Below are positions 6,901 to 8,853 of a stretch of DNA of 26,289 bases, piece after piece. The position numbers were made by a program, and so were the translations under genes. Location: positions 1 to 26,289 of the IMG/VR virus record IMGVR_UViG_3300006641_000152. One strand, given 5' to 3'. Each line of letters opens with the position of its first letter. Position 1 is the stretch's first letter. The notes beneath the pieces were generated by a model. It was not told the DNA's origin. It was given only the letters and a program-made list of their open reading frames with translations, and did not search any database. The stretch is from a virus.

Positions 6901-8853
6901 AGTGTGGGTGGGTAGTTTAGCGGGCGTTATCTGCTTCTTTGTAAGCTGGCCGAGCACAGTATCGTCGCCGCCGCCGGGGATCGCCGGCGTCTCGTCAACC
7001 TCGCCGCCGCCTTCGTATCCAATACGGCCGCCTCGTGCCGCTGTCGGATTGACGTTCGGGTCTGCTGCGTAGTTTTCAGCTTGCTTGGTAAGCCCCGGCA
7101 ATTCCAGTTTGTCGCGAACATCGCCAACAGTCTTTCTTGCCCAGTCGTAAGCCTTCTCACCAGCCTTGTAGAGTTTCTCGCCACTCTCGACAGCGCCAAG
7201 GCCGCCCTGCACCTCCCTGAGAGCCTGCGACAGTCCCGTTTGCACAGGCGCGGGACGTTGAAGCTGAACGCCCGAACCAAGCGGGGCCGGCGGCTTGACC
7301 GCGAGCCTCGGCGACCAACTGCCACGAGCATATGGCGTTTTACCAAAACTGTCGTGCGGCGTCGTGCCGCCCATGGGGTTGGCGATCTGCTCTAGAAGCT
7401 GTCGTGAGTAATTATCAACGCCGGGTGTTCCGCCAAAAGCGAAACCGAGCCCCGCCATGCTCGGATGCACGGCGCCGCCCTCCGACGACGGGATCAAGCC
7501 GCCGGCGTAAGCATGCGGGCGCTCGGCGTCCTTCGTGGCGGCGTCGTAGTCGACGGCCTTGATGCCCTCGGGCGTCTCGCTGACAGTTTCCGGGTGGTGC
7601 TTCTCGACGTCCTGCGCCGACAGACCGATTTGCGGCTGGTTCGAGCCCTTGTACTTGAACTTGATGATCTTCTGGCCGTCGTGGGTGCGGCCAATTTCGG
7701 TAATGTCTTCCTTGACGCGCTCGTCCGAGAAGAACGGCGTCGGCTGTCCGGTGACGCCGGACGTCGTGCTGCCGTAGAGCGGCCCGCCACCATAGGCGAT
7801 GTTCGCGAGGAACTGGGCGATCTGGAACGGGTACCCCTGCTGCTGCTGGTACTGGTTATACAGCGCCGCGTTGAGCTGCTGCTGGGTCTGCTGTTCCAGC
7901 GTGCCCGCCCCGAGGAGCGCCTGCCCGGCCGCCAGCCCCGTCTGGGCGCCCTGCTGACCGATCCCTGACAGACCCTGCGCCACATTCTGCCCGTAGCCGA
8001 GGAGGCCCTGCCCGAGGCCCTGCTGGGCCTGCGCGGCCGCCATGGGCTGCTGGAATGCCTGCTGCCCGATCTGGAGAAGCTGCGGCGCGAGCTGCTGGTA
8101 AGCCGCCCGGTTGGCCTGCTCGGCCCCGAGGCCCACGCCCTGCTGCTGCTGGGCCGCCTGCAGGGCCTGCCCGTAGCCTTGGGACAGGAGGCCGCCCTGA
8201 GCCTGCTGCGCCGCCAGACCCTGCTGGCGGGCCAGATTTGCGGCCGCAATCGCGCCCCTGTCGCCACCGAAGGCCCCGCGCATCGCCTGCGAGCCCATGA
8301 GCTGGCTCTGCTGCTGCTGCTGCTGCTGGTAGAGCCCCTGCATCGTCGGCGCGACGACCGACTGCAGGTAGGGGTCCATGTACCGCCCGATGTTGAGCTG
8401 CGCCGGGTTCACCGACTGCGCGCCCGCCAGCCCCGCCAGTGTAGCCGCGCCGGTGTACGGCGCGCCCATCGCCTGCGCCGCCTCGATATTCTGCCCCGCC
8501 ATGCCGTAGTAGGGGAGCGCGGCCTCGGCCGATCCCGTCAGGGCCGCCGTGGCGGCCTGCTGATAGGGCTGGTAGCCCTGCCCGGCGGCGGCAATCTGCC
8601 CGACGCCCGCCTGCTGGGTGGCAGTCAGCGGCGCAACAAACTGGCCCGTGTAGGGCTGGAACGGCTGCTGCGCAGCCTGCTCGGCGCGGGCGTTGACCGC
8701 GTCGTAGCGCGCCCGCACTTCCGGCGGGATCGTGGTCTGCTGCGTCTGGTACGTCGTGCCGCCCGCGCCGCTCTTGCCGCCGCCGAAGACGGCGCCGCCC
8801 CGTGCTAGGGAAGAGTTATGAAGTTTCCACGGCCAAGGGCAAGCAGAGCGCAT
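3994..8853 (-). CDS. Giant virion protein with S74-like motif and lytic transglycosylase-like domain (1619 aa)
   Basis: Probably an internal virion or ejection protein that opens the cell wall during DNA entry. In order: Gln/Ala-rich region about 30-350 with a seven-Gln run at 176-182; a peptidase-S74-like segment about 371-450 with FFSDERVKEDI (Ser376, Lys381, the Ser-x4-Lys spacing of intramolecular chaperones) and IGLSAQDVE; low-complexity linkers with Gly10 at 653-662 and several GGRIG motifs; a lytic-transglycosylase-like domain about 770-890 with GIESGGRYD (Glu786 the candidate catalytic acid) and GKYQVM; a Gly/Ala hydrophobic stretch before three 10-residue TQAGAAAPGA-like repeats (1262-1291); and a helical C-terminus. 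An in-frame ATG exists upstream at 9030, but the extra codons lie antisense-free inside the GNAT gene and look like a shadow, so I chose ATG 8853, two bases after the GNAT stop, with a weak AAGG. The first 20 residues look unlike the rest, so the start remains uncertain. Confidence 0.8.
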   Translation of the reverse strand: MRSACPWPWKLHNSSLARGGAVFGGGKSGAGGTTYQTQQTTIPPEVRARYDAVNARAEQAAQQPFQPYTGQFVAPLTATQQAGVGQIAAAGQGYQPYQQAATAALTGSAEAALPYYGMAGQNIEAAQAMGAPYTGAATLAGLAGAQSVNPAQLNIGRYMDPYLQSVVAPTMQGLYQQQQQQQSQLMGSQAMRGAFGGDRGAIAAANLARQQGLAAQQAQGGLLSQGYGQALQAAQQQQGVGLGAEQANRAAYQQLAPQLLQIGQQAFQQPMAAAQAQQGLGQGLLGYGQNVAQGLSGIGQQGAQTGLAAGQALLGAGTLEQQTQQQLNAALYNQYQQQQGYPFQIAQFLANIAYGGGPLYGSTTSGVTGQPTPFFSDERVKEDITEIGRTHDGQKIIKFKYKGSNQPQIGLSAQDVEKHHPETVSETPEGIKAVDYDAATKDAERPHAYAGGLIPSSEGGAVHPSMAGLGFAFGGTPGVDNYSRQLLEQIANPMGGTTPHDSFGKTPYARGSWSPRLAVKPPAPLGSGVQLQRPAPVQTGLSQALREVQGGLGAVESGEKLYKAGEKAYDWARKTVGDVRDKLELPGLTKQAENYAADPNVNPTAARGGRIGYEGGGEVDETPAIPGGGDDTVLGQLTKKQITPAKLPTHTLGGGGGGGGGGNGAMGDIKAGLGAANSAVNIASSLSKMFAAHGGRIGYDEGGEVAAAVATPPDLPIHKLDMSDSAGGGKKDTTAKDALGLAGTFANLIPGVGPVVGAGLKAASMFAKDGGRIDIEHAKRRIAGIESGGRYDAMGPLVRGDRAHGKYQVMGANIPSWTEEALGRRMTPAEFLASPEAQERVFEHHFGKYLNQHGNLADAASMWHSGRPLAEARRAGARDVNMSTEDYVAKIMGGAPPAEAHMRPKEPPVRSAGLAPAVTDVEDTHKGLVPVDTGDDFEMFNDFEMPDRFNRFASGGLVSRRGYQDGGEPTLPPFEPPGAETDRYMPLDNAENSLRRGVREAPYAQPTGVGGLNLPQHQPAALDEHAREGLAAERLNRTWRGEYDTPGAMPSVNPPTPSAAAPPIPPSRNVATVGGNSPPVAAPVAPEIRSAVPQDQNATGVVLPLKSAGAPPEDRDFFTRAGDWVGRNQNWLLPLAGGIGKMLASPSPYLGVAIGQGLAEGAQTGLGASFKQQGLDINKQQADLASARQFYDVYKDTLGRLNASDFAGNSAAKQALQVQANNLSGYITKLLGKYVGLPKDAQDILNDVSGGAAPATSASAPESTQAGAAAPGATQAGTAAPGATQAGAAAPGATTATSAPEPPKAPPIPVTQRAQAVAPRMFDNLPDERNPLKIIEKANRVSGTVPLEQVVALYNQASQIEQNWAQSGRYQDRDGVDRLVPGWLENKMQELRGTGNIKYFSEAEGTARARSNAMGTLDDMQKALENYQSGHFDAYLAQANGVLSGLGLPPLSDKKDLADYQRFLKDSYAMIFNQMGAMGGQPMKIAMEGLSNTVPSALLQPKANKQLLTNIKATLSREDKLFADQVNAALTSPAAFDPAAFYATWSKAPENNLETFKERVGREMAVRGVQPESMDDIGKKFIVEPSKTNGLSRPTPMYLLRFEPTPDGRAYIPVYGASR
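4981..5070 (-). repeat. Three 30-bp direct tandem repeats inside the giant virion gene
   Basis: Units at 4981-5010, 5011-5040 and 5041-5070. Unit 2 differs from unit 1 by one base; unit 3 differs only in its last four bases. Each encodes one 10-residue Ala/Gly/Pro/Thr block (TQAGAAAPGA type), making a flexible linker before the C-terminal helical domain. Confidence 0.95.
6868..6897 (-). repeat. (GCC)10 trinucleotide run encoding ten glycines
   Basis: Ten uninterrupted GCC units on the plus strand (GGC codons on the coding strand) give a Gly10 linker at residues 653-662 of the 1619-aa protein. Unit gain or loss keeps the frame, so it can only vary linker length. Confidence 0.95.
8308..8328 (-). 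repeat. (CTG)7 run encoding seven glutamines
   Basis: Seven CTG units on the plus strand (CAG on the coding strand) encode Gln176-182 within the Gln/Ala-rich N-terminal region of the 1619-aa protein. Confidence 0.95.

What the first reader, a model, noticed from the sequence alone, without database searches (positions are those of the whole stretch)
7500..7750. Peptidase-S74-like motif in the middle of a 1619-aa virion protein
Residues 371-450 contain FFSDERVKEDI (Ser376, Lys381) and IGLSAQDVE, like the self-cleaving intramolecular chaperone that normally sits at the extreme C-terminus of tail spikes and fibres. Here about 1170 residues follow it, including a transglycosylase-like domain. If active, cleavage before Ser376 would split the Gln/Ala-rich N-terminal part from the enzyme part, giving two virion proteins from one gene.
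Basis: partly seen in the sequence, partly recalled or inferred. Interest (0 to 1): 0.62.

Follow-up and report, generated by a model that had tools for sequence, protein, structure and literature searches.

The report
Self-cutting module joins phage ejection proteins
A small protein module related to known self-cutting domains sits inside a large phage protein, at the seam where two separate DNA-injection proteins of related phages appear to have been joined into one, so the phage may build them as one chain and cut it afterwards; the cut itself has not been shown.

Summary
Residues 376-424 of the 1619-aa protein (window 8853-3994, minus strand) match Peptidase_S74 above Pfam's cut-off, and Ser376 and Lys381 fit the catalytic motif SDxxxK. 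It is not a one-off: a search with the N-terminal part alone found the domain, internal, in 67 of 72 informative loci, and some genes carry two copies. A profile that left the motif out found 114 distinct copies, all with Ser and Lys. Cultured podophages (phiGT1, phiM5, vB_OspP_OH, pCB2047-C) explain the position: there a separate ejection or structural gene ends in the same S74, and the next gene encodes an internal virion protein or peptidoglycan hydrolase. The window gene looks like a fusion at that seam. It is a compact S74: it lacks the helix and C-terminal coiled coil that trimerise canonical members and that MyRF needs for cleavage, and no triple beta-helix precedes it. A few relatives lost the S74 yet remain one long ORF, so cleavage is not universal. 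Fusion and S74 identity are well supported; self-cleavage between two ejection proteins is the favoured but unproven mechanism. New variant of a known kind.

The parts
3994..8853 (-). 1619-aa fused ejection protein gene
   Evidence: ORF; start placed at ATG 8853, just after the GNAT gene stop
7729..8766 (-). N-terminal Gln/Ala-rich ejection-protein part (residues 30-375)
   Evidence: phrog_4287 DNA ejection protein, residues 30-439 to profile 4-386 of 392, E 1.3e-8; family profile hits phiM5_27 at 8e-24 and OH_p40 at 5e-22
7537..7728 (-). compact S74 domain (about residues 376-439)
   Evidence: PF13884 residues 376-424; AlphaFold pLDDT 73-80 over most of this stretch
7726..7728 (-). Ser376, predicted nucleophile; cut expected before it
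   Evidence: kept in 114/114 copies found without using the motif
7711..7713 (-). Lys381, predicted general base
   Evidence: kept in 114/114 copies; equals MyRF K592 / endoNF K916 (PMC8326128)
7426..7485 (-). conserved Gly-rich linker SEGGAV..GFAFGG after the S74
   Evidence: G459, G460, V462, G474, G475 nearly invariant in 33 relatives
6739..6858 (-). small-residue helix plus GGRIGYDEGG (residues 666-705); a similar place holds a second S74 in some relatives, empty here
   Evidence: sequence compared by eye with L065, L088, L098, L113, L121, L128; inference
6172..6549 (-). lytic-transglycosylase-like domain (residues 769-894), candidate catalytic Glu786
   Evidence: AlphaFold model and Foldseek to Slt/MltE; invariant Glu-Ser
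8856..9344 (-). GNAT-type protein gene just upstream, in the place of phiGT1_16
   Evidence: phrog_1249 acetyltransferase E 6e-5; order
1475..3997 (-). 840-aa protein, probable further ejection protein by position
   Evidence: C-terminus matches the gene following internal virion protein D in MW202675; order as in phiGT1; inference
10898..13210 (-). nozzle / P22 gp10-like gene
   Evidence: phrog_3287; 57% identity over 404 aa to a phage stabilization protein of MW202675
13214..13939 (-). SU10-type adaptor gene
   Evidence: PF24175 E 2.1e-16

Best explanation
The gene is a fusion of two neighbouring ejection (internal virion) protein genes of a short-tailed phage. The first partner, residues ~30-439, is a complete Gln/Ala-rich ejection protein that in cultured relatives is a separate gene ending in a compact S74 domain. 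The second partner, residues ~440-1619, carries a wall-cutting transglycosylase-like domain. The S74 therefore marks the seam. Most likely it still cuts the chain before Ser376 after folding and self-association, giving a ~375-residue ejection protein and a ~1244-residue enzyme chain that keeps the S74 at its N-terminus. Shown: S74 identity, constant SDxxxK, homology of the N-terminal part to split genes, gene order, seam position. Inferred: direction of change (fusion rather than fission), activity, self-association, packaging and ejection.
For: PF13884 above cut-off. The domain is internal in 67 of 72 informative loci found with the N-terminal part alone. Ser and Lys in 114/114 copies found without using the motif, also where the Arg at +3 is lost (phiM5 SDETTK, OH SDRNEK, ppBeUSDA76-2 SDRNAK, EPV2 SDENAK); SDxxxK is the S74 catalytic motif (PMC10769870). 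phrog_4287 covers residues 30-439 and, almost end to end, the separate proteins of phiM5, OH and ppBeUSDA76-2. In phiGT1, phiM5, OH, RHph_N2, EBPR podovirus 2, ppBeUSDA76-2 and pCB2047-C the S74 gene ends about 65-78 residues after Ser, and the next gene starts within 4 bases. phiM5_27 is annotated 'detected in phage particle proteome'. Internal cleavage into two chains has a precedent, MYRF (PMC3742443). Two internal copies in 13 of 78 complete genes.
Against: The domain lacks the ALxKxxxLxG helix and the C-terminal coiled coil that drive trimerisation, which MyRF needs for cleavage (PMC8326128). No beta-helical stalk precedes it. Loci that lost the module keep a fused ORF (L123/L124, L126, L131/L137), so cleavage is not needed everywhere. 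The fold match is weak (Z 4.6; none by Foldseek). Homology of the second partner to the downstream genes of split phages is weak (28% over 149 aa to pCB2047-C, E 2e-4). No protein data exist for this phage.
Confidence: 0.55

Rival explanations
1. The compact S74 is a folded but uncut structural module: it helps the ejection protein self-associate or dock, and the 1619-aa chain stays whole in the virion.
For: Trimerisation helices are missing; loci lacking S74 keep a fused ORF; T7 gp16 is a precedent for a large ejection protein with a transglycosylase domain (PMC8954989).
Against: Ser and Lys are kept in 114/114 copies while neighbouring positions, even Arg +3, vary; a purely structural role would not obviously need both.
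Confidence: 0.3
2. The two products arise by internal translation start after the S74, not by cleavage.
For: In the window a GTG at 7470 (Val462) has GGAGG about 8 bases upstream.
Against: Not conserved: the matching Val codon is GTG in 14 of 34 relatives and GTT, GTC or GTA in 20; only 14 of 34 have any start with a ribosome-binding-like site nearby; the GGAG arises from the conserved SEGG peptide.
Confidence: 0.05
3. S74 is a leftover of the fusion with no present role.
For: Module losses occur; canonical trimerisation parts are missing.
Against: Present in 67 of 72 loci found without it, twice in 13 of 78 complete genes, and 114/114 dyads intact in a diverse family.
Confidence: 0.1

Closest known systems
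Peptidase_S74 / intramolecular chaperone of endosialidase (endoNF CIMCD, T5 pb1, GA-1 neck appendage)
   Same: PF13884 match, SDxxxK, G-x-x-A-Q-[DE]-V motif, predicted beta-rich core
   Different: Internal, shorter, no helix 1, no C-terminal helices, preceded by a Gln/Ala-rich ejection protein instead of a triple beta-helix
MYRF / MrfA ICA domain
   Same: Internal S74 that splits one chain into two functional parts; PDB profile hit 7dc3 at E 0.0013 and best structural match
   Different: MYRF has helix 1 and a trimerising coiled coil needed for cleavage; here both are absent
phiGT1_17 / phiM5_27 / OH_p40 ejection-type proteins (phrog_4287, phrog_6121)
   Same: Compact S74; N-terminal part homologous for phiM5_27 and OH_p40; same kind of gene neighbourhood
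   Different: Separate gene with S74 at the extreme C-terminus, the enzyme in the next gene
T7 gp16 and P22 gp7-gp20-gp16 ejection proteins
   Same: Position after nozzle and gp14-like gene as in P22; wall-cutting domain as in T7 gp16; P22 gp7 is also processed, by host OpdA (record note)
   Different: No S74 module known to me in them; P22 gp7 falls in another PHROG, phrog_598
MW202675.1 'internal virion protein D' (Caudoviricetes sp.)
   Same: Same fused architecture in GenBank, 1185 aa, internal S74, SLT-like stretch by eye
   Different: Different enzyme type; product name does not mention S74

Membership tests
Peptidase_S74 (PF13884), sequence family | Profile match above gathering score | tested here: met
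   24.6 vs 22 bits, residues 376-424
Peptidase_S74 (PF13884), sequence family | Ser-Lys dyad in SDxxxK | tested here: met
   Ser376, Lys381; 114/114 copies
Peptidase_S74 (PF13884), sequence family | S74 fold | tested here: inconclusive
   MyRF ICA ranked first by VIA-align, Z 4.6, 70 residues, 3.6 A; Foldseek none; model pLDDT 73-80 in the core
Peptidase_S74 (PF13884), sequence family | Self-cleavage before Ser | not testable with these tools
   needs protein
Canonical trimeric intramolecular chaperone (endoNF CIMCD / MyRF ICA) | C-terminal trimerising helix / coiled coil | tested here: not met
   Gly-rich linker follows VDYDAAT; pLDDT under 50 from model residue 111; fibre S74s of the same phages have longer domains
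Canonical trimeric intramolecular chaperone (endoNF CIMCD / MyRF ICA) | Helix 1 between dyad and GxxAQ | tested here: not met
   replaced by GRTHDGQKIIKFKYKG, modelled mostly as strands
Canonical trimeric intramolecular chaperone (endoNF CIMCD / MyRF ICA) | C-terminal position after a triple beta-helix | tested here: not met
   1244 residues from Ser376 onwards; an ejection-protein N-terminal part precedes
Podophage DNA-ejection protein, phrog_4287 | Profile coverage | tested here: met
   residues 30-439 to 4-386 of 392, E 1.3e-8
Podophage DNA-ejection protein, phrog_4287 | Gene order: adaptor, nozzle, GNAT, this gene, further ejection protein, tail fibre | tested here: met
Podophage DNA-ejection protein, phrog_4287 | Present in virion and ejected | not testable with these tools
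   homologue phiM5_27 annotated as detected in particles
Lytic transglycosylase (lysozyme superfamily) | Fold and catalytic Glu | tested here: inconclusive
   Foldseek Slt/MltE probability about 1.0, E about 0.01; Glu786 invariant in 16 sequences; no Pfam match

The most novel reading that the evidence does not exclude
A large group of short-tailed phages makes its ejection apparatus as a polyprotein that matures through one or two compact S74 modules acting as self-cutting linkers, without the coiled coil that known S74 domains use to trimerise.
Probability: 0.4. Interest if true: 0.72.

Novelty: new variant of a known kind. Interest (0 to 1): 0.52.

Why it matters
If true, S74 would be more than a fibre chaperone: a self-cutting linker used to mature ejection proteins, in a family with at least 309 N-terminal relatives in one capped viral-contig scan. 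It would define a minimal S74 without the known trimerisation helices and make directly testable whether such a domain can cut. It also offers a function for 'tail fiber domain-containing' or 'chaperone of endosialidase' genes that sit next to ejection genes and are probably not fibres.

Tried and rejected
Single-sequence phmmer of the S74 region against the PDB gave only unrelated hits; the family profile was needed, and it also gave chance hits (ThreeFoil, RecA fusions). Foldseek with the S74 model found no S74 structure. Internal translation start: not conserved. A strongly hydrophobic, membrane-like helix just before every S74: the difference from classic fibre S74s was small (mean best 17-residue hydropathy 0.86-1.06 against 0.64), so I do not rely on it. 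P22 gp7 as a direct homologue: different PHROG. Ser codon switching (TCN to AGY) as a selection test: 100 of 101 are TCN, one AGC, so uninformative. Residue counts taken from my SDxxxK pattern and the invariant columns of alignments chosen with it are circular for S, D and K and are not used as evidence for those three. Literature searches for S74 in ejection proteins found none in the papers held, which does not show it is unpublished; most subscription papers are not held.

Full report
Observation. The gene runs from ATG 8853 to 3994 on the minus strand and gives 1619 aa. Peptidase_S74 (PF13884) matches residues 376-424 at E 3.1e-5, above the curated cut-off and over nearly the whole model. 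Ser376 and Lys381 are at 7728-7726 and 7713-7711.

More than chance. A viral-contig search with the whole protein and one with the S74 stretch gave many loci with the domain deep inside long ORFs. Because the S74 search used the motif, I then searched with an alignment of the N-terminal part only (A1, residues 1-375): at least 309 relatives, 80 kept. Of 73 of these read out, one is cut off before the site; 67 of the other 72 carry the S74 right after the N-terminal part and 5 lack it. A profile built from columns after the Lys, searched over all frames, found 114 distinct copies; 112 have Ser and Lys at the expected places, and the other two read SDPRLK followed by an insertion, so all keep both. 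Pfam agrees in 33 of 33 full-length relatives, but those were chosen because my pattern had found the domain, so that figure and the invariant columns of their alignment show consistency, not prevalence.

Why it is in the middle. In podophages of Alphaproteobacteria, and in EBPR podovirus 2, a separate gene ends in the same compact S74 and the next gene begins within 4 bases: phiGT1_17/18, phiM5_27/28, OH p40/p39, RHph_N2, ppBeUSDA76-2, EBPR podovirus 2, pCB2047-C. The downstream gene is annotated as internal virion or injection protein, peptidoglycan hydrolase or the like in several of them. phrog_4287 'DNA ejection protein' (392 positions) covers phiM5_27, OH_p40 and the ppBeUSDA76-2 protein almost end to end and residues 30-439 of the window protein, so the first 439 residues look like a complete protein of that type including its terminal S74. 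The N-terminal profile of the fused family hits phiM5_27 (8e-24) and OH_p40 (5e-22) but not phiGT1_17. The second partner is less clearly homologous: 28% over 149 aa to the pCB2047-C hydrolase. I read this as gene fusion at the S74 seam; fission in the other lineages is not excluded. Neighbours fit a podophage: SU10-type adaptor, nozzle, GNAT, further ejection protein and tail fibre.

The enzyme slot. Residues 746-918 model well in the core (pLDDT over 84) and resemble lytic transglycosylases Slt and MltE, with an invariant Glu. Some relatives carry other wall enzymes: SLT, glucosaminidase, phage lysozyme, Hydrolase_2, VanY. In L025, from a contig close to the window in its N-terminal part, the sequence changes to a glucosaminidase-like one right after the MFAKDGGRIGY linker.

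What kind of S74. The stretch from Ser to GxxA is 33-36 residues in 105 of 107 compact copies and mostly 37-55 in fibre-type ones. It is modelled mostly as strands where canonical members have a helix (ALxKxxxLxG), and a Gly-rich linker follows where they have a coiled coil. In MyRF the coiled coil drives trimerisation and mutations in it block cleavage; Ser587 and Lys592 are essential (PMC8326128). Several contigs also carry a longer S74 at the C-terminus of another ORF that looks like a tail fibre (L018, L019, L099, L103, L136, L147, L153), so two forms coexist. The profile hits MyRF ICA, a tail fibre and the GA-1 neck appendage in the PDB (E 0.0013 to 0.043); the structural match is weak.

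Mechanism. Favoured: the chain folds, associates, and cuts before Ser376, as MYRF does (PMC3742443), restoring the two-protein state of the split phages. Constancy of SDxxxK, whose Ser was shown to be needed for cutting in Bdellovibrio Bd3182 (S782A, PMC10769870), supports activity, also in forms where the +3 Arg is gone. Against it stand the missing trimerisation parts and the loci that lost S74 but keep a fused ORF (L123/L124, L126, L131/L137). Of 78 complete family ORFs, 62 have one copy, 13 two, 3 none (these include loci found through S74, and two split genes). I put self-cleavage at a little over one half.

Novelty. Compact S74 genes next to ejection genes are already annotated in phiGT1 and others, and a fused form sits in GenBank (MW202675, 'internal virion protein D'). 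I found no paper on S74 cutting between ejection proteins in the library searched. Hence a new variant of a known kind.

Noticed in passing
L065, L088, L090, L091, L092, L094, L098, L099, L113, L121, L122, L128, L148, L153, L155: Two compact S74 domains in one ORF, about 230-460 residues apart; if both cut, three proteins from one gene.
   Followed up: partly
L123, L124, L126, L131, L137: S74 module missing; the N-terminal part runs straight into the Gly-rich linker and the ORF stays whole where complete.
   Followed up: partly
window 6739-6858 and 6532-6618: Two further small-residue helices, each followed by a GG linker as at second-S74 sites of relatives, but without S74; linkers look like module-exchange points.
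   Followed up: partly
L025:3726-4313: Relative has a FlgJ/glucosaminidase-like sequence where the window has the transglycosylase-like domain.
   Followed up: no
window 7470: In-frame GTG with GGAGG upstream just after the S74; not conserved.
   Followed up: yes
window 8770-8853: The window protein's first residues (MRSACPWPWK) differ from those of near relatives such as L005, which start MFSERKIWNDG.
   Followed up: no
L056: ORF ends 445 residues after the S74 Ser, shorter than its near relative L054 (864); split gene or frameshift not resolved.
   Followed up: no
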